Positions 45,810 through 64,000 of a stretch of 64,000 nt of DNA are shown one piece after another (positions within the stretch are counted from its first letter, which is position 1; every line of letters starts with the position of its first letter). Location: the NCBI RefSeq assembly GCF_016919245.1, contig NZ_JAFEJA010000002.1, positions 1,180,501 through 1,244,500 of the forward strand, written 5' to 3'. Made by a program: the position numbers and the translations under genes. Below the pieces are notes generated by a model. The model was given only the letters and a program-made list of their open reading frames with translations. It was not told the origin of the DNA and did no database searches. The DNA is from Streptomyces zhihengii (lineage in GTDB: Bacteria > Actinomycetota > Actinomycetes > Streptomycetales > Streptomycetaceae).

Positions 45810-46091
45810 GCGTCATGCGGTCGGCGCGGGTCACACCGGCGACCCCCGCCTGTCGGCAGGAGCGCCGGCCGCAAGCTGCCGGTGCACGCGGCGACACCCG
45901 GCGACATGCCGCAACACGGCTACGTCCGCATCCGAACGCGGCCCGGACGTGCGCATCGAGCCCGGTTCCGGCTCCACGTCCTGGCCGGGGAGCCGTCGCC
46001 CCTCGTGGGCCCGCCTGCTGCACCGGGCGCTGTGTGACGCCAGTCTTCAACAGCTCGGCCCCTGTTGAGAGCAGTGCAGTACCTTTCGTTC

Positions 46092-46442: not shown

Positions 46443-46999
46443 GCCCCTGCCTCGTAACCGCGGCCCGGTTTCCTTCGAGCGAGGCAGGTGCCCTGCAATT
46501 TCACTTGCCGGTGCACCGGTTGCTCTGCCTCCCGAATGGGTGAAGGCTGGTCATGAGGGTCCTGTGGCGGGCGACCCGGCAGCATGTATGACACTCCCGC
46601 CGCGATCCTGGGCAATCATCCGGTCACAACGCGCCGGGTCGGTGTCGGTGACTCGGCTCACCAACCGTGCGGTACTCCTGCCGGGCGTCGAGGGCGGTAC
46701 GTTCAACGCCAAGCTCCGCTCCGGAACCGCCGCCTTCGCATCCTTTCGGATCGTGCACGGCATCGCGATGTCCAGCCTCGGTGTCCGTGCGACGGAAACC
46801 CGTCCCACGGACAACCCCTCAACGCAGCAGCAGGCGGCTCGCCGGCCCGGAGCGTTGATCTGGAGATCGACAAAGGCGGCGATGCCGACAGGATCGCTGC
46901 CGCGCGAAATCCGAACGGGCGGGGCCGTGCAGTGCTCGCCACTGAGGCGGGTCACCCGTTGGGGCCATCACGCAAAGGACCAAGCCGTCGGAGGCGGCC
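46443..46999. other. Intergenic region without a recognisable gene
   Basis: 557 bp upstream of the hydrolase at 47000. No frame with convincing codon use, no RNA gene and no strong promoter match. A good ribosome site (GGAGG, 46986-46990) sits at the 3' end for the next gene. Confidence 0.5.
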
Positions 47000-48199: not shown

Positions 48200-48243
48200 G
48201 CCCCTGGCCGACAGATGGCGCCAGGGACAGGATTTCCGGAGAA

Positions 48244-48285
48244 CGCCGGAGGGCCGGAAACCTCACGGATTCCGGCCCTCCGGCG
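48244..48285. terminator. Strong bidirectional terminator stem-loop
   Basis: A perfect 16-bp inverted repeat, CGCCGGAGGGCCGGAA at 48244-48259 and its complement at 48270-48285, with a 10-base loop. It lies between the hydrolase stop (48199) and the convergent metG stop (48313). Confidence 0.8.
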
Positions 48286-48312
48286 GCATGCGCCGCGCGC
48301 TTGCGCCCCGGG

Positions 48313-50037: not shown

Positions 50038-50520
50038 CCTGAGATGCTCCCTTTCGTGTGTACGGAGCCGTCCGCGGGGCAGTGGCAGGCTCGGAGAGTG
50101 CCAAACACGACGGCCGTCTCGGGACAGGCGGCCAAGCGAGTCCACGAAGACGGCCAATCGGCGTTCATCCTACGTGACCAGCGGCGGTGATCCGCGCGAC
50201 GCCGGCGGGCGGCCCGAGGCGCCGGACCGGCCGCTCGCCGGACGGCCGGATGTCCCGTGCCCGGGCATGGGCCCGGGCACGGCGTGGGGCGGGGCGCGGG
50301 GGGTGGCGGCCGAGGAGGGTACGGAGGGCCGCGGGGCGGTGTCCGCGCATCTGGGGGCGCGCAGCAGATTCCAGCCGGGCCGGCGGGCTTCGGAGAACGG
50401 GCTCCTCCCGCCGGACGCGGCCCTCGCCGCCCGGTCCGGCACGGCCTGACGCGAGCGGCGGTGATCCGCCCCCCCCATGACGGTGATCCTCCTGGGCCGA
50501 CCGCTCGTACACTGACGCGC
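50038..50520. other. Intergenic region upstream of metG and the AraC gene
   Basis: 483 bp between divergent genes, presumably with both promoters. Composition is very GC-rich and no frame on either strand has plausible protein content. No tRNA or leader structure recognised. Confidence 0.5.
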
Positions 50521-51357
50521 ATGGAGGACCACACGGTCACCGGGATCGGCGCACGGCCCGCGCCCGCCCTGCGGGAGTACGTCGACTCCTATGTCGGCTT
50601 CGACCTCCGCGGGCTCCCGGCGGGGGTGCACTGCGGCCCGCCGAGCCGGGCGCTCACCGCGGTGATCAGCCTGTCGGACCCTCTGGAGGTGGCGGCGGGT
50701 GTCGACGACGGATCGCCGGTCACCCGGTTCGGCAGCGTGGCCGGCGGTCTGATGTGCCGGTCCGTCGCGATCCACCACGACGGACGCCAGCTCGGTGTGC
50801 AGATCTCGCTGACACCGCTCGGCGCCCGGGCCGTCTACGGCCTGCCCGCCGCCGAGCTCGCCCACCGGCTGGTCCCCCTCGACGAGCTTCTCGGAGGGCT
50901 GGCGGCCGAGCTGGTCGACCGGCTCCGGTCGGCCACGACATGGGCGGCACGGTTCACCGCGCTGGACGAACTGCTCCTCCGGGCTGTTGGCCGCGGCGCC
51001 GGCGAGGACCGCGTGCGACGGCTCCGTCCCGAGGTGGCCGAGGCATGGCGCCGCCTCGTCGCCGCGCGGGGCTGCGTCCCGGTCGGGGCGGTCGCCGCGG
51101 AGCTCGGCTGGAGCCGGCGGCACCTCACCGAGCGGTTTCGCGGTGAGCTCGGCCTGTCCCCGAAGACCTTCGCCCGAGTCCTGCGCTTCGAGCACGCGCA
51201 CCGACTGGCGGCGGCGCGGGACCCGCTCCCGTGGGGCGATGTGGCCGCCGTCTCCGGCTACGCCGACCAGGCCCATCTCGTGCGGGACTGGCGCGAGTTC
51301 ACGGGCCGGTCGCCGACGGCCTGGCGTCGCGGCGAAGTCCTCCTCGGAGCCGGGTAG
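50521..51357 (+). CDS. AraC-family transcriptional regulator
   Basis: A 278-residue regulator. The N-terminal domain is of the DUF6597/AraC_binding-like type (SYVGFDLRGLPAGVHCGPPSRALTAVISL, then QISLTPLGARAVYGLPAAEL). The C-terminal HTH reads GAVAAELGWSRRHLTERFRGELGLSPKTFARV and VAAVSGYADQAHLVRDWREFTGRSPTAW. The cupin and SGNH genes that follow on the same strand after 81 bp are possible targets (inference). Confidence 0.88.
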   Translation: MEDHTVTGIGARPAPALREYVDSYVGFDLRGLPAGVHCGPPSRALTAVISLSDPLEVAAGVDDGSPVTRFGSVAGGLMCRSVAIHHDGRQLGVQISLTPLGARAVYGLPAAELAHRLVPLDELLGGLAAELVDRLRSATTWAARFTALDELLLRAVGRGAGEDRVRRLRPEVAEAWRRLVAARGCVPVGAVAAELGWSRRHLTERFRGELGLSPKTFARVLRFEHAHRLAAARDPLPWGDVAAVSGYADQAHLVRDWREFTGRSPTAWRRGEVLLGAG

Positions 51358-51438
51358 CGCCGGCTGCGCGCCCTTCGCGCCGGCTTCTCTTCCCTTTTCT
51401 TCAAGACCGCCCGACCGCCGGCGCGGACGATCGTCGGC

Positions 51439-51909
51439 ATGAGACTCCTCAACGACGAACCCCGTGCCATGGACCTGCGGACCGTCCCCGTGCACCTCGG
51501 ACTGGGATCGACGGCGAAACCCGTCGAGGGCTTCGCCTGGGACCCGGAGGCGCTCCGGGCCTACAGCGCCGCGGTCGCGGCGGACGGCGCCGAGGGCCGG
51601 ATGGTGATGATCTTCGACGGCGACGGGCCCGGCGACCACTGGGAGCGCCACCCCGCGGGAGACGAGCTGGTCGTCTGCCTCAGCGGGTCGGTGACGGTCA
51701 CCCGTGACGTGGACGGGGTGCCCGACCGCGTACCGCTCGGGCCGGGCGAGGCCACCATCAACCCGGCCGGGGTGTGGCACGCGGTCGACATGGAGGGGCC
51801 GTCGTCCATCCTGGCCGTCACCGCGGGACTCGGCACCGACCACCGTCCCCGGACCGACCCCGGCCCGACCGGACACGCCGGCACGCCCGGCCCGGAGGAA
51901 GCGCCGTGA
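51439..51909 (+). CDS. Cupin-domain protein
   Basis: A 156-residue single cupin: MIFDGDGPGDHWERHPAGDELVVCLSGSVTV with metal-binding His/Glu, then LGPGEATINPAGVWHAVDME. Function unknown. Its stop overlaps the GTG of the SGNH hydrolase (GTGA at 51906-51909), so the two are coupled. Confidence 0.82.
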   Translation: MRLLNDEPRAMDLRTVPVHLGLGSTAKPVEGFAWDPEALRAYSAAVAADGAEGRMVMIFDGDGPGDHWERHPAGDELVVCLSGSVTVTRDVDGVPDRVPLGPGEATINPAGVWHAVDMEGPSSILAVTAGLGTDHRPRTDPGPTGHAGTPGPEEAP

Positions 51910-52625
51910 CGACACGTATCGCGTGCCTCGGCGACAGCCTCACCCGCGCGCAGTTCAGCGTCGACTACCTGGAACTTCTCGGACGACGCCACCCTCCCGG
52001 CGAGGTGCGGCCCGCCCGCCTCGGCGTCAACGGCGACTTCGCCTACAACCTCCTGCAACGCCTCGACGCCGTGGTCGCCGACCCGCCCGAGGTGATCACC
52101 GTGCTGATCGGGACCAACGACGCCCGAGCGAGCCTCGCCGGCTACCCCGTCGAGCAGGCCGTGAAGCGCAAACGGCTCCCCGGCCGCCCGTCGGCCGGCT
52201 GGTTCCAGGAGTGCCTGGGAGCCGTCGTCGCACGGCTGCGGGCGGAGACCGACGCGACGATCGGTCTGCTGTCGCTGCCGGTACTCGGCCAGCGACTCGA
52301 CGGAGCGGCGGCGCAGGCGTCCCACGCGTACAGCCGGATGATCGCCGAGGTCGCCGCCGGCAACGGGGTGGCCTGCCTTCCGCTCCACGAACGCCAGATC
52401 GAGGAACTGCGCCGGGCGGACCCGCCGCCGATCGCGTACCGGGAGGTGACCCCCGCGGAGGTCGTCGGCGTCCTCGCCCAGCACAAGGTGCTCCGCCGCA
52501 GCCTCGACACGATCTCGCGGCGGCGAGGTCTCGTGCTCACGACCGACCAGATCCACCAGAACAGCCGCGGCGCGGCGCTGATCGCCGAGGTCATCGACGC
52601 CGGTCTGCTCGCCCGGAGCGGCTAG
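51906..52625 (+). CDS. SGNH/GDSL-family hydrolase
   Basis: A 239-residue cytoplasmic esterase-like protein. Block I is IACLGDSLTRAQFS (catalytic Ser), block II GVNGDFAYNLLQRL (Gly), block III VLIGTNDARA (Asn). The block V Asp-x-x-His appears as TDQIHQNSRG. Substrate unknown. It is coupled to the cupin gene. Confidence 0.85.
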   Translation: MTTRIACLGDSLTRAQFSVDYLELLGRRHPPGEVRPARLGVNGDFAYNLLQRLDAVVADPPEVITVLIGTNDARASLAGYPVEQAVKRKRLPGRPSAGWFQECLGAVVARLRAETDATIGLLSLPVLGQRLDGAAAQASHAYSRMIAEVAAGNGVACLPLHERQIEELRRADPPPIAYREVTPAEVVGVLAQHKVLRRSLDTISRRRGLVLTTDQIHQNSRGAALIAEVIDAGLLARSG

Positions 52626-52793
52626 CCGCTCCGGCGCCCGGCCGCCCGGCCGGTCGGATGCCGTCCGCCGCGCGGACGACGCATGCGTCGAGGGGCGGCT
52701 CGTGGGCCGGTGCCGTCTCCTCGGAGCGCCGCGGCCCGGGACGACGGGCGACGCGGGTGGCATCGGCCGCCCGCGTCGCAGGAGCACAGGCCG

Positions 52794-53354
52794 TCAGGCC
52801 GGCTCGGTCAGTTCGGCCGCGCCGAAGGACACGTCGAAGCGGTCGCACCAGATGGCGAGGCTGGAGAAGTCGGCCGGGTCCACCGTCGGGGGTACGGGGT
52901 AGTTCTGGTCGCCCTTGTTGCCCTTCAGCTTGCCGAGGCTCACATGGGCGCCGTCGTCGAACACGTGCCAGCCCGCGCGGCCCTCCACGACCCGCGCGTC
53001 GGTCAGCAAGACGCGCAGGTCCGGGCCGTTGCTGGTGTCGAGGTTCTCCAGGCGGATGGTGTGGCTGCCGTCCGGCAGCCGGATGAGGCGCACCGTTCCC
53101 GAGGTCTCGTGCTCGTGGCTGATGAGCCGGCCCTCGGCCACCGTTCGCGGTGACGGCGGGGGAGCGGTGGCGGACCCGGTGGCGTCGGACGGCTCGTCCG
53201 CGGCGGGCGCGGTGCCCGGCAGCGCCTCCCGCACCGTCTCGTCCTGCCAGAGCTTCCACGGCTGGAACCAGTACAGCCCCACTCCCGCGAGGGCGATCGC
53301 CCCGGACAGTGCCACGGCCCAGGACCTGCGCCTTCGATGCCGCCCGTCGTCCAT
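52794..53354 (-). CDS. Membrane-anchored DM13-domain protein
   Basis: A 186-residue protein. Residues about 10-28 form an N-terminal membrane anchor (SWAVALSGAIALAGVGLYWF). A Pro/Ala/Thr linker follows, then a DM13 domain from about residue 72 (GRLISHEHETSGTVRLIRLPDG, RLENLDTSNGPDLRVLL, and NYPVPPTVDPADFSSLAIWCDRFDVSFG). DM13 domains are thought to act in electron transfer or redox sensing at the cell surface. ATG 53354 is used. Confidence 0.8.
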   Translation of the reverse strand: MDDGRHRRRRSWAVALSGAIALAGVGLYWFQPWKLWQDETVREALPGTAPAADEPSDATGSATAPPPSPRTVAEGRLISHEHETSGTVRLIRLPDGSHTIRLENLDTSNGPDLRVLLTDARVVEGRAGWHVFDDGAHVSLGKLKGNKGDQNYPVPPTVDPADFSSLAIWCDRFDVSFGAAELTEPA

Positions 53355-53466
53355 CGCGGCCCCCCTTCACGTACGTCGGAACGCCATTCAACGATGCCGG
53401 GCACCGGCCGCGCCAGCTCGCCGCACTCCCGCCCGCACGGAGCCGGTCCCCGCCTCCCCGGCGGGA

Positions 53467-53985
53467 TCACCAGCCGCCGGTGCCGGGGCCGCCCTTGAAC
53501 GGACCCTGGATCTCGGAGGTGATCCAGCCGCCGTAGAAGTCCCCCTCCTGGGCGACGACCTCCTCACCGCCGACGGTGCAGTGCAGTGCGGAGGGATAGA
53601 AGGCCAGGTGGCCGCGGAGGGCCTCGTACCGGCCGAGGGGCTGCTCGTAGCTCCAGGCGGCCCCGGGCACCACGATGTCGTCGGTGACGACGTCCCAGTA
53701 GGACGCCGTGCCCTTCCACTCGCAGTGGGTACGGCCCGGCCGGGCGCGCAGCAGCTCCGCCCGGACGTCGCCGCGGGGCACGTAGAACACCGGCGGATGG
53801 CTGGTCTCCAGGACCCGCAGGCTCGCGCGGGTGTCCGCGACGACCTGGGAGCCCGCCCGGACGGTCACGCGGCGGTCGTCCCCCGCCAGTTCCGGGGGCC
53901 TGGGGTAGTCCCACACCGACTCCATGGGCCGCGCGCCGGACCGCGGCATGCCCTGGGGGCCGCCCGGTGTGCCGTCAGTGTTCAT
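53467..53985 (-). CDS. DUF427-domain protein
   Basis: A 172-residue protein with the DUF427 core: VRAGSQVVADTRASLRVLETSHPPVFYVPRGDV, THCEWKGTASYWDV and LGRYEALRGHLAFYPSAL. The function of the family is not settled. ATG 53985 has no strong ribosome site; earlier in-frame codons have low-complexity composition. Confidence 0.82.
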   Translation of the reverse strand: MNTDGTPGGPQGMPRSGARPMESVWDYPRPPELAGDDRRVTVRAGSQVVADTRASLRVLETSHPPVFYVPRGDVRAELLRARPGRTHCEWKGTASYWDVVTDDIVVPGAAWSYEQPLGRYEALRGHLAFYPSALHCTVGGEEVVAQEGDFYGGWITSEIQGPFKGGPGTGGW

Positions 53986-54413
53986 CGAGGTCTCGATTCC
54001 CGGTGTCGTCCGACTGCCTGTGCCACGTGTTTCCTCCGCACCCCGGCCCACGGATGCGCGCCCGCCACGGGAGCGGCGCCGCGCGGGAGCGTCCGCCGGG
54101 GGCGGCCGTCGGACGACTGCCCGGGACCGCTGCCGGGGCGCGCGGCCCGGGGGATCCTCGCCTCCCGCCTGTCCACTCCGTGAGACGACACCGGTTCCGC
54201 CCACCGGCCCCGCGAAGTCGCCGGGTCGTTCGGCGTCGAACGGTTCCACGAGGTCCCCCGCCCTCTCCGCGGTCCCGGGCAGCGGACGGGGCGGGAGCGC
54301 CGGCCGACGGGTGTTTGACGCGTCCCGGGGCACGGGCGATCGTTCCCGTGCGCGGCACCGCTCCGCCCGCACGTGCGCGCGCAGCCGCTCCGTCAGTCAT
54401 GAAGGGGTTCGTC
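53986..54413. other. Regulatory gap upstream of the pyrimidine/indigoidine locus
   Basis: 428 bp between divergent genes without a recognisable coding frame. It holds a -35-like TTGACG at 54315-54320 and the inverted repeat annotated separately at 54330-54351. Confidence 0.5.
54330..54351. promoter_or_regulatory. Inverted repeat, possible operator of the upp operon
   Basis: GCACGGG at 54330-54336 and CCCGTGC at 54345-54351 are perfect complements around eight bases. It lies 10 bases after a -35-like TTGACG (54315-54320), so the repeat would cover the -10 region (GATCGT at 54338-54343). It ends 62 bases before the upp start. The bound factor is unknown. Confidence 0.45.
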
Positions 54414-55073
54414 GTGATACCTGCACGGAATGTGAGCCTGCTGCCGCAGACCAACCAGTTGCGCGCGCTCCACACGGTCGTACGCAACAGGGGCGTCTCG
54501 GGACGGGAGTTCGAGGTCTTCTCGCGCCGGATCATCCGGCTGCTGCTCGAAGCGGGGCTGGATCTGCTGCCGTTCGAGGAGCGCGAGGTCACCACTCCCG
54601 TCGGGGAGACCTACCACGGGCTGGGTTTCACCCGGCCGGTCTGCGGCGTCTCCGTGGTACGCGCCGGGGAGAGCATGGAGGCCGAGCTGCGCGAGATGAT
54701 CCCCGGCATCGGCATCGGGAAGATCCTCATCCAGCGCGACCGGCGGACGAAGCAGCCCGAGCTCTTCTACCACCACCTTCCCGCGGGCATCGCCGCGAGC
54801 CATGTCCTGCTGATGGAGCCCATGCTCGCCACCGGCGGATCGGCGCTCGCGGCGCTGGACGTGCTGCGCAAGGCCGGAGTCCCGGACGAGAACGTCGTCC
54901 TGGTCAACTTCCTCGCCTCCCCGCAGGGTCTGGAGCGGCTCGGCCGTGAGGCCCCGGCCGTGCGGATCGTGACCTCGTCCGTCGAGGACGGTCTCAACGA
55001 GCACGCGTTCATGGTTCCCGGGATCGGCGACTTCGGGGACCGGTACTTCGGCACGGTGGCGACCACCTCATGA
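54414..55073 (+). CDS. upp: Uracil phosphoribosyltransferase, eukaryote-like type (MinD-like)
   Basis: A 219-residue enzyme making UMP from uracil and PRPP. The PRPP site is MEPMLATGGSALAALDVL, with VSVVRAGESMEAELREMIPG and VPGIGDFGDRYFG also conserved. The opening NVSLLPQTNQLRALHTVVRN is closer to eukaryotic and secondary UPRTs than to housekeeping bacterial Upp. GTG 54414 has GAAGGGG seven bases upstream; ATG 54399 would add five residues. It overlaps the EamA gene (ATGA). In the minimycin system I recall a UPRT raising UMP to protect the producer; the same role is inferred. Confidence 0.9.
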   Translation: MIPARNVSLLPQTNQLRALHTVVRNRGVSGREFEVFSRRIIRLLLEAGLDLLPFEEREVTTPVGETYHGLGFTRPVCGVSVVRAGESMEAELREMIPGIGIGKILIQRDRRTKQPELFYHHLPAGIAASHVLLMEPMLATGGSALAALDVLRKAGVPDENVVLVNFLASPQGLERLGREAPAVRIVTSSVEDGLNEHAFMVPGIGDFGDRYFGTVATTS

Positions 55074-56041
55074 GACAGCGTCTCGCGACCGACTCCGCGC
55101 TGACCGTGCTGGCGCCCGTCGTCTGGGGCAGCACCTACCTGGTGACCACGGAGTTCCTCCCCCCGGACCGCCCGCTGCTCGCCGCCGCGGTGCGTGCGCT
55201 GCCGGGCGGGCTGATCCTCACCCTGCTGGGCAGGCGGCTGCCGTACGGCCCCTGGTGGTGGCGGGTGCCGGTGCTGGGGGCCCTGAACATCGGCTTCTTC
55301 TTCTACCTCCTCTTCCTCGCCGCCTACCACCTGCCGGGCGGTGTCGCCGCGCTGGTCGGGTCGGTGCAGCCGCTCGTGGTGCTGGTGCTGTCGGCCCTGC
55401 TGCTGAACGAGGCGGTCCGCGGCTGGCAGGTCGGTGCCTGCGTGCTCGGCGCGCTCGGTGTGGGCATGCTGGTGCTCGGCCCCGAGGCGCGGCTCGACGC
55501 GGTGGGGGTGGCCGCCGGGCTGGGGGCCGCCCTCTGCATGGCGTCGGGCATCGTCCTGACCAAGCGCTGGGGCCGCCCGCCGGGGGTGGGGCTGCTCACC
55601 TTCACGGGCTGGCAACTGGCCGTCGGCGGTGTGCTGATCGCCCCGGCGGCCCTGGTCGGCGAAGGGCTTCCCGAGCGGATCACCGGGACGAACGTGGCGG
55701 GCTTCGCCTACCTCAGCCTCATCGGCGCCCTGCTGGCGTACGCGGTCTGGTTCCGCGGGATCGAGCGGCTGCCCGCACTGACCGTCTCGCTGCTCGGCTT
55801 CGCCAGCCCGGTCGCCGCCTGCCTCCTCGGATTCCTCTTCCTGCGGCAGGGCCTGACGCTCGTCCAGGCCGCCGGTGCGGCCGCGGTGGTCGGCGCGGTC
55901 CTGCTGGCGCAGCGCTCGACGGCCCGGGAGTCCCGAGCGGCGCGCGGCCCCGCCCCGGCAGGCGTCCGGCGGACCCGCGCGGACCGGCCCGAGGGCGCCG
56001 CACGGTCGGCTCCGCACCCCGCACAGAAGGAGGAGGCGTGA
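55070..56041 (+). CDS. EamA/DMT-family exporter (MinT-like)
   Basis: A 323-residue membrane protein with about ten helices in two EamA repeats (APVVWGSTYLVTTEFLPP opening repeat one; the second begins near AAGLGAALCMASGIVLTKRW). A charged tail of 35 residues follows. It probably exports the product of the adjacent NRPS pathway or an analogue. It is coupled on both sides: ATGA with upp and GTGA with the HAD gene. Confidence 0.88.
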   Translation: MRQRLATDSALTVLAPVVWGSTYLVTTEFLPPDRPLLAAAVRALPGGLILTLLGRRLPYGPWWWRVPVLGALNIGFFFYLLFLAAYHLPGGVAALVGSVQPLVVLVLSALLLNEAVRGWQVGACVLGALGVGMLVLGPEARLDAVGVAAGLGAALCMASGIVLTKRWGRPPGVGLLTFTGWQLAVGGVLIAPAALVGEGLPERITGTNVAGFAYLSLIGALLAYAVWFRGIERLPALTVSLLGFASPVAACLLGFLFLRQGLTLVQAAGAAAVVGAVLLAQRSTARESRAARGPAPAGVRRTRADRPEGAARSAPHPAQKEEA

Positions 56042-56694
56042 CGCGCCCGGTCCTGTTCGACCTCGACGGAACCCTCGTGGACACCCCGAGCGCCATCGTC
56101 GAGAACTTCACCGCGACCCTCGCCTCGCTCGGCCTCCCGGCCGTGTCCGCCGAGGACATCCGGGGCACCGTCGGCAAGCCCCTGGAGAAGGCGTTCGCCG
56201 AGCTCATCGGTGACTTCCCGGTCACCGTCGAGGAGGCCGTCCCCCGCTACCAGCGGCTGTACCGCGAACAGATCGTGCCGCGGGCCCAGTCCCTGCTGTA
56301 TCCCGGTGTCGCGGACGGTCTGGCGCGGCTGCGCGAGGCGGGCTTCGTCCTCGCCGTCGCCACCAACAAGCACACCGCGAGCGCCGAGGTGCTGCTGGAG
56401 GCGGCGGGCATCCGGGGGCACTTCGCCATGGTGGTCGGCGCGGACGCCGTCACGGAGCCGAAGCCCGCGCCGGAGACCGGGCTGCTCATCGCGGCCGGCC
56501 TCGGTGCTCCGGCCGATCGCGCGATCATGGTCGGCGACACCACGCACGATCTGCTGATGGCCCACCGCGCCGGGATGCGATGTATCGCCGTCACCTACGG
56601 CATCCACTCGCCCGCGGAACTGGCCGCGGCCGGGCCCACCTGGACGGCGCGGTCCTTCGCCGAGGTCGTCCAGCTCATCGTCGACGCGGAGTGA
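56038..56694 (+). CDS. indB: HAD-family phosphatase (IndB / MinC-N like)
   Basis: A 218-residue HAD hydrolase with a helical cap, phosphoglycolate-phosphatase-like. Motif I is VLFDLDGTLVDTP, motif II LAVATNKHTAS, motif III KPAPETG and motif IV MVGDTTHDLLMAHRAG. In indigoidine and C-nucleoside clusters such an enzyme dephosphorylates a nucleoside 5'-phosphate. The GTG at 56038 overlaps the transporter stop. No second (DUF4243-like) domain is attached. Confidence 0.82.
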   Translation: MTRPVLFDLDGTLVDTPSAIVENFTATLASLGLPAVSAEDIRGTVGKPLEKAFAELIGDFPVTVEEAVPRYQRLYREQIVPRAQSLLYPGVADGLARLREAGFVLAVATNKHTASAEVLLEAAGIRGHFAMVVGADAVTEPKPAPETGLLIAAGLGAPADRAIMVGDTTHDLLMAHRAGMRCIAVTYGIHSPAELAAAGPTWTARSFAEVVQLIVDAE

Positions 56695-56707
56695 GCGCGG
56701 AGTGAGC

Positions 56708-56727
56708 GCGGGGCCCGTGGGCCCCGC
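56708..56727 (+). terminator. Compact stem-loop between the HAD and NRPS genes
   Basis: GCGGGGCCC (56708-56716) pairs with GGGCCCCGC (56719-56727). The loop drawn is only two bases, so the inner pairs open in practice. It suggests that the NRPS gene, 180 bp further on, has its own promoter. Confidence 0.5.
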
Positions 56728-56907
56728 CGCCCCGGCGGCTGCGGCCGTGGCACGCCGCGCCGCCCTTGGGATCGCCGGCGCGCAGCGGCACGGCCGTCCG
56801 CCCGCGCACCGGCCCACCCCGCACGTCCAGCACCAGGCCGACACCGGCACACCCGGCCCCGGCTGCCGGGGCCGTCGCAGCTCACACTCCCGAGGGGATC
56901 TTCGGAC

Positions 56908-59900
56908 ATGGGCATCACGTCACCGAGACCGGAAGAGCACCACCACGACTCGCTGCCGTCCCTGCTGCGCCGTCAGGCCCGCGCACACCGCGGCCGCGTC
57001 GCCGTCTGCGGGGCGGAGGGCGACCTCACGTTCGGCGAACTGCGGGACGCGGCCGAGCGGATCGGCTCCCACCTGGTCGGCCTCGGGGTGCGGCCCGACA
57101 CCTGTGTCGGCCTCTTCGCCGAGCCCTCCGCGGACGTGGTGACGGGCGTGTGGGGCATCCTCACGGCCGGCGCGGCGTATCTGCCGCTGTCGCCGGACTA
57201 CCCGGACCCGCGGCTGCGCTACATGGCCGACGACGCGGGTGTCCGGGTGGTCGTCACCCAGCCGCACTTACGCGGCCGGCTCCGCGGACTGGTCTCCGAG
57301 GGGACGGTGGTGGTCACCGTCCGCGAGGCCATGGCCGCGGCCGGCCGGCATCCTCTTCCCGAGGTGAGGGGCGAGCACCTCGCGTACGTCATCCACACCT
57401 CGGGGAGTTCCGGCAGCCCCAAGGGCGTGATGATCGAACACCGCAGCATCGTCGCGCAGGTGCGCTGGCTGGAGCGCAACGGCCACATCGGCCCCCAGGT
57501 GTCCGTCCTGCAGAAGACGCCGATCAGCTTTGACGCGGCGCAGTGGGAGATCCTGGCCGCGGCCGCAGGCACCCGCGTTGTCATGAGCACGCCCGGTATG
57601 TTCCGGGATCCGCAGGGGATCGTCGCCCTGATCCGCGAGCGGGGCGTCACCGCGCTGCAAGCCGTCCCCACACTGCTGCGCGCCCTCGCCGACACCGACG
57701 GCTTCCCCGCCTGCGCCACACTGGCGCGCGTCTTCTCCGGCGGGGAGGCGCTGACCCGCTCCCTCGCCCAGGACCTGTACCGCGCCCTCCCGGGCATCTC
57801 GCTGGTCAACCTCTACGGCCCGACCGAGACCACCATCAACGCGACCTCTCTCCGGATCGACCCGGACTCCCTCGGCGACTCCTGCCCCTTCCTGCTCCCC
57901 GTCGGACATCCGGTGGACGGCGTCACCTGCCACGTCCTGGACGAGAACCGGCGTCCCGTCGGCGCCGGCCGGAGCGGGGAGCTGTACATCGGCGGAATCC
58001 AGGTCGCCCGCGGCTACACCGGACCCCCGGACGCCACGCGGGAGCGCTTCCACCCCTCACCGTTCCACCCCGGCGAGCGCCTCTACCGGACGGGCGACCT
58101 CGCCCGGTGGAACACGGACGGCACCCTCCAGTTCGAGGGCCGCGTCGACAACCAGGTCAAGCTGCGCGGTCACCGGATCGAACTGGAGGAGGTCGCGTCA
58201 CGCGTCGAGGAGCACCCCTGGGTCCGCAAGGCCGTCGCCGTCGTCACCCCGGACCCGCGCACCGGCTCCCCGACGCTCGTCGCCGCGGTCGAACTCGACG
58301 AGCGCACGGCCGCCCTGATGGACCAGGGCCGCGCCGACTCCGGACACCACCGGTCGAAGTCCTCCAGGCTCCAGGTCACCGCCCAGCTCGCCCACCGCGG
58401 TCTGCGGGAGCCGGCCCTCCTCGCCGGACGGCCGGTCGTCCGGCTCGCCTCGCCGGAAGCATCCGACGAGCAGCGCCTGACCGCCTTCGCCCGCAAGACG
58501 TACCGCTTCTACGAAGGCGGCCGGGTGACCCTCGACGACGTGCGCGCGCTGCTCGCCCCCCGGCCCGCCGAGGCCCCCGCCCCGGGCGAGGTCACCGGTC
58601 TCACCGCCGCCGAACTCGGCCACCTGCTGCGGTGGCTGGGCCCGCACCGGAGCGCCGAGCGCCTGCTGCCGAAGTACGCCTACGCCTCTCCCGGCGCCCT
58701 CTACGCCACCCAGCTCTACCTGGAGATCGACGGCGTCGCCGGACTGTCGGGCATCTACTACCACCACCCGGTCGACCACACCCTGGTCCGGGTCGGCGAC
58801 CACCCCTCGGCGGGCGGCGCACCCGGGCTGACGCTCCACTTCCTGGGCAAGCGCCGCGCCATCGAGCCGGTGTACCGGAACAACATCGGCGAGGTGCTGG
58901 AGTTCGAAGCCGGACACATGCTCGGCGTCCTGGAGGAGGTGCTGCCCCCGTACGGCCTGACCGTCCGCCCGGCCGGCCACCACCCGTCGGTGGCACCCCT
59001 GCTCGACGCGGCCGACGACGACCACTACCTCGGCACCTTCGCGATCGTCCCGCACGACGGCCGCCCCCGGCCGGAGGAGGCGGAGCTCTTCGTCCAGGCC
59101 CACGGCGACCGGGTCGCGGGCCTCCCGGGCGGGCTCTACCGCCTCCACGAGGGCGAACTCGTCCCGGTCGGCGCGGACGTGGTGGAGCGGCGCCATGTCA
59201 TCGCGATCAACCAGGGCGTGTACGACCGGGCCTCGTTCGGCATCAGCGCCGTCTCCCGCGCGAGCGAGGCGTGGCGGCACTACATCGTCCTCGGCACGCT
59301 GCTGCACCGGCTCCAGCGCGTGCCGGGCATGGGCCTCATGTCGGCCGGCTACTCCTCCCGGTCCGGCCACCCGCTCCCGGCGTCGCTCCGCCTGGACGAA
59401 CTGCTGCGCCTGGCCCGCGTGCCCGCCGCACCGGCCTCCTACTTCTTCGTCGGCGGCCGCGTCACCACCGGGCAGACCGAACACCAGGGCATGGACGAGG
59501 ACGCCGTGCACACCCAGGGGCCGGCCGAGATGATCCGCGAGGACGCCGGGCGCTTCCTCCCCGACTACATGGTCCCGGCCCGGGTGGTCGTGGTGGACCG
59601 GCTGCCCGTCACCGCCAACGGCAAGACCGATCTCACCGCGGCCGCGCTCCTGCCCGAGGTGACGGCGGCGGGCACCGCGGCCGTCCATGTCGAGCCCGCC
59701 ACCCGCACCGAGCGCTGGCTGGCCGCCGAGTGGGGCCGGCTGCTGGGCTACGAGAAGGTCTCCACCCAGGACGACTTCTTCGCCTCCGGCGGCAACTCCC
59801 TGCACTCCGTGGCTCTCGTGAACAGGGTGAACCGGCGGTTCGGCACGCGCCTGCCCCTGCAGACGGTCCTCGACGTCCCGAGACTGGCCGACCTGGCGGC

Positions 59901-60744
59901 GCGCATCGACGACGGCGCACCCGCCTCCGCCTCGCGGCTCGTGCGCCTCGGCGGCGACGGCCGGGGCACCCAGGTCTTCGTCTGGCCGGGGCTGGGCGGC
60001 TACCCGATGAACCTGCGCCCGCTCGCGCAGGGCGTCGCCGGTGAACGCTCGCTGATCGGGATCCAGGCCCACGGCGTCAACCCGGGCGAGACGCCCCACA
60101 CCACGATCCGCCGGATGGCGGAGGCGGACGTCGCCGAGATCCGCCGGATCCAGCCGATGGGCCCGTACACGCTCTGGGGCTACTCGTTCGGCGCCCGGGT
60201 CGCCTTCGAGGCCGCCTGGCAGCTGGAGCAGGCAGGCGAGAAGGTGGAGAACCTGCTGCTCATCTGCCCGGGAAACCCGCCGGTGCGGAAGCGGAAGGGC
60301 GCGGGCCGGGCCCGCGCGGCGTCGTTCGCCGACCCGGCATACGTCTCCGTCCTCTACTCGGTGTTCGCCGGCACCGCCCACGGCCCCGGTGTGGACGCCT
60401 GCCTCCGCGAGACCGCGGACGAGGACTCCTTCACCGCCTTCGTCCGCCGGACCATCCCCACGCTCGACGAGGGGACCGTGCGCCGCGTCACCGAGGTCGT
60501 CGCGGTCACCTACGCGTTCGAGTACACCTTCCGCGAACTCCGGGAGCGCCGAGTGGAAGCACCCGTGACCGTCTTCAAGGCGCGCGGCGACGACTACTCC
60601 TCCCTGGAGAGCGCCTCCGGCTGGTCGGCCCGCCCGCCACGGGTCGTCCACCTCGACGGGGACCACTACGAGGTGCTCCGGGAGGACCGCGTCGCGGAAC
60701 TGGTCGCCGCCATCCGCGGCCTGGACCCCGCCCGGGGAGGCTGA
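56908..60744 (+). CDS. indC: Indigoidine-synthetase-type NRPS (A with inserted oxidase, T, TE)
   Basis: A 1278-residue single-module NRPS of BpsA/IndC layout and length. Adenylation motifs: HTSGSSGSPKG (163-173), NLYGPTE (301), YRTGDLA (393), GRVDNQVKLRGHRIELEEV (411-429). A flavin oxidase (McbC-like) is inserted at about 430-880 (SHHxS-like region, FARKTYRFYEGG, LLPKYAYASPGALYATQLY, GYSSRSGHPLPAS), before LPDYMVP (884) and NGKTD (904). The carrier Ser964 is in GGNSLHS. The thioesterase has GYSFG (Ser1093) and His1253. Family enzymes activate L-Gln, oxidise and cyclise it, and release the indigoidine monomer. Leu121 is TTA (57268-57270), so expression should need bldA. Confidence 0.95.
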   Translation: MGITSPRPEEHHHDSLPSLLRRQARAHRGRVAVCGAEGDLTFGELRDAAERIGSHLVGLGVRPDTCVGLFAEPSADVVTGVWGILTAGAAYLPLSPDYPDPRLRYMADDAGVRVVVTQPHLRGRLRGLVSEGTVVVTVREAMAAAGRHPLPEVRGEHLAYVIHTSGSSGSPKGVMIEHRSIVAQVRWLERNGHIGPQVSVLQKTPISFDAAQWEILAAAAGTRVVMSTPGMFRDPQGIVALIRERGVTALQAVPTLLRALADTDGFPACATLARVFSGGEALTRSLAQDLYRALPGISLVNLYGPTETTINATSLRIDPDSLGDSCPFLLPVGHPVDGVTCHVLDENRRPVGAGRSGELYIGGIQVARGYTGPPDATRERFHPSPFHPGERLYRTGDLARWNTDGTLQFEGRVDNQVKLRGHRIELEEVASRVEEHPWVRKAVAVVTPDPRTGSPTLVAAVELDERTAALMDQGRADSGHHRSKSSRLQVTAQLAHRGLREPALLAGRPVVRLASPEASDEQRLTAFARKTYRFYEGGRVTLDDVRALLAPRPAEAPAPGEVTGLTAAELGHLLRWLGPHRSAERLLPKYAYASPGALYATQLYLEIDGVAGLSGIYYHHPVDHTLVRVGDHPSAGGAPGLTLHFLGKRRAIEPVYRNNIGEVLEFEAGHMLGVLEEVLPPYGLTVRPAGHHPSVAPLLDAADDDHYLGTFAIVPHDGRPRPEEAELFVQAHGDRVAGLPGGLYRLHEGELVPVGADVVERRHVIAINQGVYDRASFGISAVSRASEAWRHYIVLGTLLHRLQRVPGMGLMSAGYSSRSGHPLPASLRLDELLRLARVPAAPASYFFVGGRVTTGQTEHQGMDEDAVHTQGPAEMIREDAGRFLPDYMVPARVVVVDRLPVTANGKTDLTAAALLPEVTAAGTAAVHVEPATRTERWLAAEWGRLLGYEKVSTQDDFFASGGNSLHSVALVNRVNRRFGTRLPLQTVLDVPRLADLAARIDDGAPASASRLVRLGGDGRGTQVFVWPGLGGYPMNLRPLAQGVAGERSLIGIQAHGVNPGETPHTTIRRMAEADVAEIRRIQPMGPYTLWGYSFGARVAFEAAWQLEQAGEKVENLLLICPGNPPVRKRKGAGRARAASFADPAYVSVLYSVFAGTAHGPGVDACLRETADEDSFTAFVRRTIPTLDEGTVRRVTEVVAVTYAFEYTFRELRERRVEAPVTVFKARGDDYSSLESASGWSARPPRVVHLDGDHYEVLREDRVAELVAAIRGLDPARGG

Positions 60745-60809
60745 CCCGTCACGAGACCGGCCGGCGCCCGCCGGTCCCCTCACCCGCAACGCCCCCGCAA
60801 CCCAACCCC

Positions 60810-60832
60810 GGGGCCGCCGCGAGGGCGGCCCC
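60810..60832 (+). terminator. Stem-loop between the NRPS and tautomerase genes
   Basis: GGGGCCGCC (60810-60818) pairs with GGCGGCCCC (60824-60832) across GCGAG. It may terminate or attenuate NRPS transcripts before the two small downstream genes. Confidence 0.5.
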
Positions 60833-60853
60833 GTATCCGGAAGGAACCCGGCC

Positions 60854-61108
60854 GTGCCCCATGTCACCGTCCAGCACTTCACCCGTACGTTCACCGATGC
60901 CGAGAAGGCCGATCTCGTCGAGGCGGTGACGGAGGCGGTCACCCGCGTCTTCGGCACCGGCCCGGGGAACGTGTCCCTCGCCGTCGAAGCGGTCGATCCG
61001 TCCGACTGGACCGAGCAGGTCTACCGGCCGGCCGTCGAGGAGCGGCCCGAACTGCTGTGGAAGCACCCCGAGTACACCCCGTCGGCCGGCGGCGAGGGCG
61101 ACCGATGA
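60854..61108 (+). CDS. 4-oxalocrotonate tautomerase-family small enzyme
   Basis: An 84-residue protein beginning (V)[17 protein letters not shown]. After removal of the initiator, Pro1 would be the catalytic base of the tautomerase superfamily. The helix [14 protein letters not shown] and the strand [14 protein letters not shown] fit the beta-alpha-beta fold. GTG 60854 follows GGAAGGAA. Its stop overlaps the psuG-like start (ATGA at 61105-61108). A role in isomerising the oxidised glutarimide made by the NRPS, or an imine/enamine step, is conceivable but unproven. Confidence 0.82.
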
Positions 61109-62046
61109 GGTCCGCGGGCCGTGCGATCCCCGTCGTCCCCACCGCGGAGGTCCGCGAGGCCCTGTACGAGGGCCGGCCGGTCGTCGCCCTGGAGTCCAAC
61201 GTCATCACCCACGGTCTCGCCTACCCGGCCAACGTGGAGGCCGCCCACAAGGTGGAGGCGGCGGTGCGCAAGGGCGGTGCCGTACCGGCCACCATCTGCG
61301 TGGACGGCGGTGCGATCCGGGTCGGCATGTCCGACGCGGAGATCGAGCGCTTCGCCTCCGAGCCGGGCATCCCGAAGGTGTCCAGCCGCGACCTGCCGGT
61401 GGTCCTCGCCCGGGGCGGCCGGGGCGCGACCACGGTCGCCTCCTCGCTCGTCGCGGCCGAACTCGTCGGCATCCCGTTCTTCGCCTCGGCCGGTCTCGGC
61501 GGGGTGCACCGGGGCGCGCCGACGACGATGGACGTCTCCTCCGATCTGATCCAGCTCACCCGGTCGAAGGTGGCGGTGGTCTGCGCCGGCGCGAAGATGA
61601 TCCTCGACCTGAAGCTGACGATGGAGTACCTGGAGACGCACTGCGTGCCCGTGATCTCCACCGGATCCGACGACTTCCCGGCCTTCTACTGCGCCTCCAG
61701 CGGCGTGCGTTCGCCGCACCGGGTGGACGACGACGACCTGCTGGCCCGGATCGTCGCCACGCACTGGGCGGCCGGACAGCCCGGCGGTGTGGTCATCACC
61801 ACGCCGCCGCGCCCCGAGGACGCGGTGGATCCCGCCGAGGCCGAACAGGCCATCGCCGAGGCCCTCGCGAGCGCCGAGCGGGACGGCGTGCGGGGCCAGG
61901 GGCTCACCAAGTACCTGATGCGCGCGGTCGACCGAGCGACCGGCGGCCGGACGGCGAAGGCCAATCTCGCCGTGCTCGTCTCCACCGCCGAGACCGGGGG
62001 GCGACTGGCCGCCGCCTACGCCCGCCATCGGGCCGCGGCCGCCTGA
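61105..62046 (+). CDS. indA: Pseudouridine-5'-phosphate glycosidase (IndA/PsuG type)
   Basis: A 313-residue enzyme of the PsuG family, which makes or breaks the C-glycosidic bond between ribose 5-phosphate and a uracil-like base. Conserved parts are [67 protein letters not shown] and the Asp/Lys region [20 protein letters not shown]. In indigoidine clusters it is called IndA; in C-nucleoside pathways it would couple the base to ribose phosphate. Coupled to the tautomerase gene and last in the operon. Confidence 0.93.
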
Positions 62047-62070
62047 CGCACGTCGTCACGGGCGGGGGGT

Positions 62071-62092
62071 GGCCGGCTTCGATCCGCCGGCC
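62071..62092. terminator. Stem-loop between convergent genes
   Basis: GGCCGGC (62071-62077) pairs with GCCGGCC (62086-62092) across eight bases. It lies between the indA stop (62046) and the convergent kinase stop (62130). Confidence 0.55.
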
Positions 62093-62129
62093 GCCCCGGC
62101 CCGCCCCGGCGGGCGGGCCGGCGGGCACC

Positions 62130-62765
62130 TCACAACGCGAGCGCGGGGACCCCGGGGGTACGGGTCGCGGCGCACACGCCCGGTGCCCGCGAGGGCGCCG
62201 CGGGCGCGAGGGTCGGCCCGATCAGCGGCATGACGGCCGCGAGCATCTCCGCCTCGCTCGCGGTCCCGTCCACGACCAGATCGGCCGCCGCCCGGGACGG
62301 CGCGACATGGGCCGCGTGGCGGTCCCGGCCCGTCTGCAGATAGTTGCGCAGGGAGAGCAGCGGGTCCTGCCGCTGCGCCTCGATCTTCCGGAGGATCTTG
62401 CGGGCCAGGCGTATGTCGTCGGGGGTGTCGACGTACACCCGCCACGCCGCGCGCCGCACCACCGACGGCAGTGTCAGCGCGAACAGCCCCTCGACCACCA
62501 CCAGCAGCACACCGGGGCGCAGCAGCGCGGCGTCGATGGCGTCCGTCACGGCCGTCTCGTCGATCGACCCCGGATGGTTCCAGTCGAGGATGGAGTGTCC
62601 GCTGGCACTGACCGTCCACACACCTCGCAGGGGGTCGTGCGCGGGCACGTAGTAGTCGTCCAGATGGATCAGTGCCACGGTGTCGGGACACTCCAGCGAC
62701 AGGGCTTCGGCAAGGGTGGACTTGCCGGATGCGGTGCCGCCTGCGACCGCCAGTACACCCGTCAT
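62130..62765 (-). CDS. Uridine-kinase-like P-loop NTPase
   Basis: A 211-residue kinase. The Walker A loop is VAGGTASGKSTLAEAL, then VALIHLDDYYVPAHDPLRG and WNHPGSIDE (nucleoside-binding Asp/Tyr/Trp), VVVEGLFAL, and the lid Arg in DTPDDIRLARKILRK. This is the uridine kinase/phosphoribulokinase pattern. It would phosphorylate uridine or a related nucleoside. A 40-residue Ala/Pro tail follows. ATG 62765 follows GAGGAGCG. It converges on the indigoidine operon, which also handles uridine-like nucleotides. Confidence 0.87.
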   Translation of the reverse strand: MTGVLAVAGGTASGKSTLAEALSLECPDTVALIHLDDYYVPAHDPLRGVWTVSASGHSILDWNHPGSIDETAVTDAIDAALLRPGVLLVVVEGLFALTLPSVVRRAAWRVYVDTPDDIRLARKILRKIEAQRQDPLLSLRNYLQTGRDRHAAHVAPSRAAADLVVDGTASEAEMLAAVMPLIGPTLAPAAPSRAPGVCAATRTPGVPALAL

Positions 62766-63322
62766 ACCGGGCGCTCCTCATGTGCTCAAAGGGAATAGAC
62801 GAAGCGGCTGACAAGCCGAGTGGAGGGACTGTAAGGCCGCGTGCTCGCCCCTGGCAAGCAGGGAAAAGCGACCCGGCTCGGCGGCGGCCGGGACCCCGGC
62901 TTCCGGCCGGCCCGCGCGCCCGTCCCGGCGATGCCGCGGACCGTCGGCGGGGGCGTGGCGGGCCCCCTCGACGGCAGGGTTCCGTCGTCCGTCACGCACC
63001 TCGGGCGCGTGTCGACGCGAAGAACGCATCAGCTGCGACGAACCCCTGAAGCACCTTGCGGATGCCACCTCAGGGCTCTCCTTCACCTCTTGGATGATCC
63101 GCCGGACCGAGGGCCGCCCGGCGGGCCGCTTTCCGTGCGCTGATCCCATGGCCCCGACAGTCCGAAGACTGTTTGACTGACTCGCGCCGGCCCCGAAGCG
63201 GAGAAGTGGCTCTCGCCGACTTCCGGCCGGCCGGAAGGGCCCCGCGTGCTGTCCGTGGTGTTCGGCGCGCGGGGGCCCTCGTCACCCCGCCGTCCCGGCC
63301 GGCCGTGTGCCCGGTGGCCGGT
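62766..63322. other. Intergenic region with one palindrome
   Basis: 557 bp upstream of the kinase and downstream of the MarR gene. No coding frame is convincing. A 16-bp palindrome is described separately at 63157. Confidence 0.5.
63157..63172. promoter_or_regulatory. 16-bp palindrome ACAGTC-CGAA-GACTGT
   Basis: ACAGTC (63157-63162) and GACTGT (63167-63172) are perfect complements around CGAA. The site is about 390 bp upstream of the kinase start and 150 bp beyond the MarR stop. It may be an operator or a small terminator loop. Confidence 0.35.
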
Positions 63323-63811
63323 TCAGCCGAAGTCGTCGGGGACGATGCGCAGTTTCTCCGCGATGCGGGCGAGGGCCTTCCGGTCGGTGGCGTTGAGCGC
63401 GTCGAGGACGGTGTGGCGTACGGAGCGCAGGTGGGTGGGCGCCGCCCGCTCGACGAGGGCGAAGCCGGCGTCGGTGAGTTCGGCGAGGGTGTAGCGGCCG
63501 TCGGCGGGGTCGGGTGTCCGTACGATCCAGCCGCGTTGTTCGCAGCGTTTGACGACGTTGGACAGGCGGGAGAGCGACCCGCTGGCGAGGAAGGCGAGTT
63601 CGCCCATCCGCAGCCTGCGCCCCGGGGCCTCCGAGAGGTGGCTGAGGACGAGGTACTCGAACAGGGTGAGGCCGTGGTCCTGCCGCAGTGGTGACTCGAG
63701 CTTGCCGGGCAGCAGCAGGACGAGGGAGATCAGCCCTGTCCACGCGGCCTTCTCCTGCTCGTCGAGCCATCGCAGCTCCTCTTCGTCCTCGTGATCGCCC
63801 GCGCCGCTCAT
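63323..63811 (-). CDS. MarR-family transcriptional regulator
   Basis: A 162-residue repressor with winged-helix core LTLFEYLVLSHLSEAPGRRLRMGELAFLASGSLSRLSNVVKRCEQRGWIVRTPDPADGRYTLAELTDAG (shown by its parts: RMGELAF, SRLSNVVKRCEQRGWI, DPADGRYTLAEL). ATG 63811 has GGAGG five bases upstream; ATG 63832 adds seven residues. Two matching 20-bp palindromes lie between it and the divergent gene at 63963, so it probably represses both. Confidence 0.88.
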   Translation of the reverse strand: MSGAGDHEDEEELRWLDEQEKAAWTGLISLVLLLPGKLESPLRQDHGLTLFEYLVLSHLSEAPGRRLRMGELAFLASGSLSRLSNVVKRCEQRGWIVRTPDPADGRYTLAELTDAGFALVERAAPTHLRSVRHTVLDALNATDRKALARIAEKLRIVPDDFG

Positions 63812-63864
63812 GGGCCCCTCCGTCTTGGTCATGGATCTTCCCGCCTCTCCGACGACACCCGCAA

Positions 63865-63917
63865 TGACTTTGCGCTTGAAGTCATCGCTTGCTAGTCTCA
63901 CTTTACGCGTGAAGTGA
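63865..63917. promoter_or_regulatory. Twin 20-bp palindromic operators of the MarR protein
   Basis: TGACTTTGCGCTTGAAGTCA (63865-63884) and TCACTTTACGCGTGAAGTGA (63898-63917) share T-n-ACTTT-n-CGC-n-TGAAGT-n-A with perfect 6-bp arms. They lie 33 bp apart centre to centre, about three helical turns, between divergent starts. Confidence 0.75.
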
Positions 63918-63962
63918 TGTCGGGGGAAACGCGCCCCCTGTGGACAGGAAAGAGGGACCACC

Positions 63963-64000
63963 ATGAGCACCGTCACCTTCGGCGTCGCCCCCGGCTACGG
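63963..64000 (+). CDS. Start of an unidentified gene (partial)
   Basis: ATG 63963, preceded by AAAGAGGGA, opens MSTVTFGVAPGY and runs off the window. It is the divergent partner of the MarR gene and should be under its two operators. The protein is too short here to identify. Confidence 0.6.
   Translation, partial: MSTVTFGVAPGY

What the first reader, a model, noticed from the sequence alone, without database searches (positions are those of the whole stretch)
54414..62046. Indigoidine-type NRPS locus with a C-nucleoside-like self-protection set (UPRT, exporter, phosphatase) and PsuG
Seen in sequence: a coupled upp-EamA-HAD operon, then a BpsA-type NRPS, a tautomerase and a PsuG. From memory of the minimycin work, an NRPS of this kind decides between indigoidine and the C-nucleoside minimycin, while a UPRT, a phosphatase domain and a transporter give self-resistance by raising UMP and removing the toxic 5'-monophosphate. 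Here all three roles are present, which argues that the locus may make a pseudouridine-like antibiotic and not only a blue pigment. Differences from the set I recall: the phosphatase has no second domain, and there is an extra tautomerase.
Basis: partly seen in the sequence, partly recalled or inferred. Interest (0 to 1): 0.8.

Follow-up and report, generated by a model that had tools for sequence, protein, structure and literature searches.

The report
Indigoidine locus with C-nucleoside module
A six-gene Streptomyces cluster carries the blue-pigment (indigoidine) enzyme together with genes like those that attach the sugar, remove the phosphate, export and protect in a nucleoside antibiotic pathway, but not the domain that finishes minimycin, so it may make a related nucleoside besides the pigment.

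Summary
In detail: six same-strand genes, UPRT-EamA-HAD-NRPS(A-Ox-T-TE, glutamine code DAWQFGLINK)-tautomerase-PsuG/IndA, 54414-62046. Gene set and order match Streptomyces albus J1074 cluster 9, where promoter insertion gave indigoidine. The tautomerase is not extra: the minimycin NRPS carries it as a fused domain. What is missing is DUF4243 (PF14027), which acts in turning the C-nucleotide into minimycin: no match in the host genome by two searches that work in control genomes.

In 99 distinct BpsA-type loci, 30 carry IndA: A, with HAD and DUF4243 (7); B, PRAI-like gene (18); C, HAD only (4, the window among them); one cut off. UPRT follows IndA whatever the tailoring: 25 of 26 IndA loci against 0 of 59 without. 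The tautomerase and EamA are less specific: 29 and 7 of 69 IndA-less loci have them. The host has separate PsuG and UPRT copies.

Best reading: indigoidine plus a ribosylated aminopyridone C-nucleoside, with UPRT, phosphatase and exporter as protection; minimycin itself is not predicted. No chemistry was tested. The gene set is known; the three-way split and the missing-DUF4243 prediction are the new part.

The parts
54414..55073 (+). UPRT (MinD-like uracil phosphoribosyltransferase, 219 aa from GTG; ATG 54399 also in frame)
   Evidence: PF14681 E 1.1e-70. Best solved relatives 1upf/1bd3 (236 bits) and 7rh8 (206), all others at most 112 bits; the host's own second UPRT shows the reverse, 1i5e 214 bits, 7rh8 105, 1upf 101.
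55070..56041 (+). EamA/DMT-family exporter, 323 aa, overlapping UPRT by ATGA
   Evidence: PF00892, two stretches, E 3.1e-32
56038..56694 (+). HAD phosphatase (IndB / MinC N-domain-like), 218 aa, GTG start overlapping EamA
   Evidence: PF13419 E 2.4e-39, DLDGT motif; 54-59% identical to HADs beside DUF4243 in Streptomyces loci, at most 33% to the host's other HADs
56908..60744 (+). BpsA/IndC/MinA-type NRPS, A-Ox-T-TE, 1278 aa, no fused tautomerase
   Evidence: Pfam AMP-binding, PP-binding, Thioesterase; specificity residues read DAWQFGLINK, T GGNSL, TE GYSFG and GDHY; Ox region has 1153 homologues at E<=1e-3 among 8000 scored candidates (capped); one TTA codon at 57268
60854..61108 (+). Discrete 4-oxalocrotonate-type tautomerase, 84 aa, Pro after the initiator
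   Evidence: PF01361 E 7.2e-7; aligned with YdcE 1gyj over 76 residues, E 1.2e-5
61105..62046 (+). IndA/MinB-like pseudouridine-5'-phosphate glycosidase-type C-glycosynthase, 313 aa
   Evidence: PF04227 E 1.5e-106; aligned with PsuG 4gij, E 2.2e-73; the lysine that is alanine in the 4gim chain is conserved

Best explanation
The locus is a branched indigoidine / C-nucleoside cluster of the min/ind family without the ring-forming step of minimycin. Steps: the NRPS loads L-glutamine, oxidises it, and its TE domain releases a cyclised aminopyridinedione (published for BpsA/MinA, inferred here from domains and code). Two molecules couple spontaneously to indigoidine, or the tautomerase presents the monomer to IndA, which joins it to ribose 5-phosphate by a C-C bond (inferred). 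The HAD phosphatase removes the 5'-phosphate and the EamA protein exports the nucleoside (inferred). The cluster's own UPRT raises UMP to outcompete the C-nucleotide (inferred from MinD). With no DUF4243 enzyme, the end product would be a ribosylated aminopyridone C-nucleoside, not minimycin.
For: All six genes present and under purifying selection against S. microflavus, IndA strongest; no match above 60 bits outside the six genes is shared between window 45001-64000 and the S. microflavus or S. bambusae loci. Code DAWQFGLINK, the code reported for the S. albus J1074 enzyme. UPRT present in 25 of 26 IndA loci and 0 of 59 IndA-less BpsA loci with enough flank; in all 99 rows 28 of 30 against 1 of 69. 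On the Ox-domain tree IndA changes 10 times, and in 5 independent pairs on starred branches UPRT goes the same way in 4.9 on average. The host has a separate PsuG and a separate, ordinary Upp, and the cluster copies group with those of other clusters. No DUF4243 in the host by profile or protein, while the 4 strong PF14027 matches in 295 Streptomyces genomes all lie beside HAD and UPRT. The HAD is closer to the HADs of such loci than to the host's other HADs.
Against: No product is shown. The one experiment I found on this gene set, S. albus J1074, reported indigoidine. UPRT as protector is taken from the min work, of which I saw only a review's passages. The Fisher test ignores kinship, and the pair test cannot reach 0.05 with 5 pairs. 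Only UPRT tracks IndA tightly: the tautomerase is also in 29 of 69 IndA-less loci, EamA in 7 of 69, and HAD goes with IndA in only 1.1 of 5 pairs. C-type is rare: 2 of 66 loci in the Streptomyces sample, with S. microflavus beyond it and a Vibrio locus near a contig end. IndA exists without UPRT in one Erwinia locus (L017).
Confidence: 0.6

Rival explanations
1. Indigoidine is the only real product; IndA, HAD, tautomerase and UPRT merely support flux, repair or salvage around pigment synthesis.
For: J1074 with the same gene set turned blue when the NRPS was switched on. In the Streptomyces sample 46 of 65 distinct loci have the NRPS without IndA, so the NRPS commonly occurs without that module. 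The tautomerase is in 29 of 69 IndA-less loci.
Against: If the module served the pigment, UPRT need not track IndA; it does, 25 of 26 against 0 of 59. IndA is the slowest-changing gene here.
Confidence: 0.2
2. The locus makes minimycin, the missing ring oxidation being done by an unrelated oxygenase elsewhere in the genome.
For: Genes for the other published min steps are present.
Against: No PF14027 match or DUF4243 relative in the genome, and no further gene travels with the six in the S. microflavus or S. bambusae loci. The 4 strong PF14027 matches in 295 genomes all sit inside such clusters.
Confidence: 0.1
3. The locus is a reduced descendant of the B architecture (PRAI-like gene, often OYE) that lost its tailoring genes, making little or nothing of use beyond pigment.
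For: Window plus S. microflavus sit beside B-type loci on the NRPS and IndA trees (starred sets). L136, next to B-type L135, has no IndA and only a UPRT fragment, so decay happens.
Against: A HAD not found in any of 18 B loci is present and conserved; dN/dS 0.13-0.34 for the six genes against S. microflavus; HAD-only loci fall in at least two places on the trees, with different gene order (L008).
Confidence: 0.1

Closest known systems
Streptomyces albus J1074 cluster 9 (SSHG_00311-00316; PMC3992020, passages read)
   Same: IndA-like, tautomerase, A-Ox-T-TE NRPS with code DAWQFGLINK, IndB-like, transporter, phosphoribosyltransferase, in the same order
   Different: None seen at gene level; whether its IndB lacks DUF4243 is not stated in the passages, and I did not hold the locus
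Minimycin/oxazinomycin cluster of S. hygroscopicus JCM 4712 (minA-D, minT; PMC8724604, passages read; the primary paper was not held)
   Same: NRPS, tautomerase activity, PsuG-like C-glycosynthase, HAD phosphatase, UPRT, a transporter
   Different: Here the tautomerase is a separate gene, no DUF4243 was found in the genome, and the transporter is an EamA protein with no relative above threshold in the 7 DUF4243-bearing IndA loci surveyed
B-type loci (e.g. L011 S. bikiniensis, L112-L114), and the pigment region of Corynebacterium aurimucosum plasmid pET44827 (PMC2830990, passages read)
   Same: UPRT or phosphoribosyltransferase domain, BpsA-type NRPS, IndA; the window's NRPS and IndA sit beside those of B-type loci
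   Different: They carry a PRA-isomerase-like gene, in 13 of 18 an Old Yellow Enzyme, and no HAD was found
Pseudouridine-5'-phosphate glycosidase PsuG/YeiN (4gij) and AlnA (4ex8)
   Same: Sequence family of IndA, conserved motifs
   Different: YeiN acts on pseudouridine 5'-phosphate; the host keeps its own PsuG beside a PfkB-like frame elsewhere

Membership tests
Indigoidine synthetase (BpsA/IndC) NRPS | Single module A-Ox-T-TE with the oxidase inside the A domain | tested here: met
   (AMP-binding, split C-part at 873-906, PP-binding, Thioesterase); Ox region 480-870 homologous to such enzymes
Indigoidine synthetase (BpsA/IndC) NRPS | L-glutamine code DAWQFGLINK | tested here: met
   Residues picked by motif from the alignment and printed; J1074 code
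Indigoidine synthetase (BpsA/IndC) NRPS | Makes blue pigment | not testable with these tools
   No chemistry
Minimycin gene cluster | PsuG-like C-glycosynthase (MinB) | tested here: met
   PF04227; groups with cluster IndAs; activity not tested
Minimycin gene cluster | Tautomerase acting on the released monomer | tested here: met
   PF01361, discrete gene; activity not tested
Minimycin gene cluster | HAD phosphatase | tested here: met
Minimycin gene cluster | DUF4243 (PF14027) domain | tested here: not met
   0 matches in the host. Controls: G285 1.1e-161, Serratia genome 7.0e-125; G124 is the query's own genome. One search's built-in controls rang nowhere, but one search found 147 of 295 Streptomyces genomes with some match
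Minimycin gene cluster | UPRT (MinD) | tested here: met
Minimycin gene cluster | Transporter MinT | tested here: inconclusive
   An EamA exporter is present; no relative above threshold in 7 A-type loci; MinT's own sequence was not held
B-type (PRAI) cluster | PRA-isomerase-like gene beside UPRT | tested here: not met
   No PRAI match above threshold in window 45001-64000

The most novel reading that the evidence does not exclude
BpsA-type loci with IndA are a family of C-nucleoside clusters that differ in what is done to one shared pyridone C-nucleotide: DUF4243 (oxazine ring, minimycin), a PRAI-like enzyme with OYE or other flavoenzymes (unknown product), or nothing but dephosphorylation (window, S. 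microflavus, S. bambusae). The window then makes a free ribosyl-aminopyridone, a C-nucleoside known to me only as a pathway intermediate, and that compound or its phosphate is itself toxic enough to keep a dedicated UPRT.
Probability: 0.4. Interest if true: 0.7.

Novelty: new variant of a known kind. Interest (0 to 1): 0.45.

Why it matters
Such NRPS genes are easily filed as 'indigoidine' on the NRPS alone. In the Streptomyces sample 20 of 66 loci carry IndA (with L131 counted), and UPRT goes with it almost without exception, so IndA plus UPRT may be a simple marker for hidden C-nucleoside producers. The window's type lets one ask whether the DUF4243 step is needed for toxicity at all, and the B type points to a tailoring route that I found no study of.

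Tried and rejected
Housekeeping rival for IndA and UPRT (that they are the ordinary pseudouridine or uracil salvage genes): rejected, the host has separate copies. Uridine-kinase-like gene 62130-62765 as a seventh part: convergent strand, weak family match (77 bits, 180 needed), not shared with the S. microflavus or S. bambusae loci; left out. No regulator gene lies among the six as read; more distant regulators were not tested. HAD tree: too poorly resolved to say whether the C-type HADs have one origin. A 'relatives' search returned Streptomyces places already known and one place outside the genus (G431), not analysed. Plasmid search: 17 records, best 53% of the query, none 80% or more. The primary minimycin paper was not held, so MIN facts come from passages of a review. 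Structure prediction was not run.

L131 duplicates L008. 14 of 99 rows were left out of the 85-row count for short flanks (the window was kept although its right flank is 3.3 kb). L034 is missing from the Ox tree, L157 from the UPRT tree. The A, B and C labels are defined by the genes themselves, so 'HAD in 7 of 7 A' is a finding but 'DUF4243 in A' is not. Presence rests on bit-score thresholds with mainly the window's proteins as queries, so far diverged copies may be missed. In one search, besides the 4 strong PF14027 matches, 143 of 295 genomes have weaker, mostly partial ones (best 7.6e-15), whose surroundings I did not examine. L020 (Vibrio) ends 1.3 kb beyond its HAD and also holds an FMN-reductase-like frame (my reading), so its C label is unsure. 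L157's NRPS frame is interrupted; it was left as it is.
Full report
WHAT IS THERE. Six genes lie on the + strand: UPRT (54414-55073), EamA exporter (55070-56041), HAD phosphatase (56038-56694), a single-module NRPS (56908-60744), a small tautomerase (60854-61108) and a PsuG-type protein, IndA (61105-62046). Pfam supports each. Three gene pairs overlap by four bases. Gaps of 213 and 109 bases separate HAD-NRPS and NRPS-tautomerase. The NRPS has one TTA (bldA) codon at 57268. The NRPS matches a protein named Streptomyces zhihengii at 99% over the Ox region, so the host is probably that species or a near one (inference). The genome has 9.73 Mb in 7 contigs, completeness 100.

NRPS. The specificity residues, picked by motif, read DAWQFGLINK, and the T and TE motifs are intact. 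The same code is given for the S. albus J1074 enzyme (PMC3992020, passages). The oxidase's catalytic Tyr, mentioned in PMC8724604, was not mapped.

KNOWN RELATIVES. PMC3992020 lists, around the J1074 NRPS, IndA-like, a 4-oxalocrotonate tautomerase, IndB-like, a transporter and a phosphoribosyltransferase: the same set and order; the promoter ermE*p in front of the NRPS gave indigoidine. PMC8724604 (passages) describes minimycin: MinA with A, Ox, T, TE and Tau domains; MinB C-glycosynthase; MinC HAD plus DUF4243; MinD UPRT; MinT transporter; MinC-N, MinD and MinT give self-resistance. PMC12766979 (one passage) notes fused and discrete tautomerases among indigoidine clusters.

THE MISSING PIECE. 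DUF4243 is Pfam PF14027 (the equation of the two names is recalled; one search confirms that the fetched gene beside HAD and UPRT is PF14027). The host has no match. In 295 Streptomyces genomes 147 have some match, of which 4 are strong (E<1e-30) and the rest are 7.6e-15 or weaker and mostly cover part of the profile. All four strong ones lie beside HAD and UPRT. A protein search with one of these finds nothing in the host, nothing in the S. bambusae genome, only weak partial matches (8e-9) in the S. microflavus genome, and 1.1e-161 and 7.0e-125 in two control genomes besides the query's own. By the published pathway this domain acts on the C-nucleotide on the way to the oxazine ring, so minimycin is not predicted. 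That an enzyme called OzmD rearranges a pyridine C-nucleoside is my recollection, not from a call.

SURVEY. 62 of 392 Streptomyces genomes have the Ox domain, 66 places; 65 regions were fetched, the 66th is the window. With L001-L034 this gives 100 loci, 99 distinct. IndA is in 30: A-type 7 (HAD and DUF4243), B-type 18 (PRAI-like and UPRT; OYE in 13, FMN reductase and PfpI protein in the other 5, nitroreductase in 8), C-type 4 (HAD only: window, S. microflavus L001, S. bambusae L008, Vibrio sagamiensis L020), and one cut off (L115). In the Streptomyces sample of 66, with L131 counted: B 12, A 5, C 2, cut off 1, none 46. HAD is found in 7 of 7 A and 0 of 18 B. HAD and DUF4243 share one frame in 2 of 7 A loci (L134, L141). 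Nothing above 60 bits outside the six genes is shared between window 45001-64000 and L001 or L008.

UPRT FOLLOWS IndA. Of 85 rows with enough flank, UPRT is in 25 of 26 with IndA and 0 of 59 without (Fisher 1.2e-20, kinship not controlled). In all 99: 28 of 30 and 1 of 69, the last being L030 at a contig end. The exceptions are L017 (Erwinia) and L115 (contig end). On the Ox-domain tree IndA needs 10 changes; 5 independent pairs on starred branches, UPRT same way in 4.9 on average, p 0.0625, the lowest that 5 pairs can give. The link holds in A, B and C, so UPRT does not depend on DUF4243. L136, near B-type L135, has no IndA and only a UPRT fragment (62 bits), which fits joint loss. Against too tidy a picture: the tautomerase is in 29 of 30 IndA loci but also 29 of 69 others, EamA in 7 of 69 others, and HAD does not track IndA (1.1 of 5 pairs).

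TREES AND SELECTION. On the IndA and NRPS trees the window pairs with S. microflavus, beside B-type loci in a starred set; S. bambusae falls elsewhere (quick trees). HAD-only loci therefore arose, or were left, at least twice. dN/dS against S. microflavus: IndA 0.13, UPRT 0.17, EamA 0.20, tautomerase 0.32, NRPS 0.34, HAD 0.34.

CLUSTER COPIES ARE NOT HOUSEKEEPING. The host has a second PsuG at C1:6230443 beside a frame that looks like a PfkB-type kinase (the kinase is my reading of the sequence) and a second UPRT at C1:4302010. The cluster UPRT is nearest to the 1upf/1bd3 group (Toxoplasma, recalled) and 7rh8, the second UPRT to 1i5e and its like.

MECHANISM AND LIMITS. Inferred: glutamine to aminopyridinedione; dimerisation to indigoidine, or tautomerisation and C-ribosylation by IndA; dephosphorylation by HAD; export; UMP raised by UPRT. 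Nothing was shown chemically. The EamA exporter has no relative in the A-type loci, so only its role, not its descent, can be compared with MinT.

LITERATURE. Searches: minimycin+indigoidine, indigoidine+tautomerase, indigoidine+pseudouridine+phosphatase+Streptomyces, oxazinomycin, indigoidine+phosphoribosylanthranilate, C-nucleoside/genome mining/indigoidine, DUF4243/OzmD, bpsA/UPRT/indigoidine. I saw listings, and passages of eight papers; none of these passages describes the three-way split or the UPRT-IndA link. The primary minimycin paper was not held and may discuss distribution. The C. aurimucosum pigment region lists IndA, NRPS, a phosphoribosyltransferase domain and a PRAI homologue, a B-type gene list without this reading.

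Noticed in passing
L009, L011, L012, L013, L019, L026, L112-L114, L116, L118, L123, L125, L135, L138, L142, L143, L145: 18 BpsA-type loci carry a PRA-isomerase-like gene (PF00697) and UPRT, 13 of them an Old Yellow Enzyme (PF00724), 8 a nitroreductase, 5 an FMN reductase plus PfpI protein: a tailoring set for the shared C-nucleotide that I found no study of.
   Followed up: partly
window 54414-55073: The cluster UPRT is closer to 1upf/1bd3 and 7rh8 than to the other solved UPRTs, the reverse of the host's second copy.
   Followed up: partly
window 57268: One TTA codon in the NRPS gene, a possible bldA control point; 36 of 89 NRPS frames checked have at least one (stop-to-stop frames).
   Followed up: partly
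L144: An NRPS with fused tautomerase and a DUF4243 frame (468 bits) but no IndA, UPRT or HAD above threshold in 20 kb.
   Followed up: no
L137, L141, L148, L017, L023: A-type loci seem to use other exporters: an MFS-like protein near the NRPS in L137 and L141, pairs of small membrane proteins in L017 and L023 (and one such frame in L148); my reading of the sequences, no family search.
   Followed up: no
window 62130-62765 (-): A uridine-kinase-like P-loop protein convergent with IndA (PF00485, 35 bits); no sign that it belongs to the cluster.
   Followed up: partly
L136: Near relative of B-type L135 with NRPS and EamA, no IndA and only a UPRT fragment: looks like loss of the nucleoside branch.
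   Followed up: no
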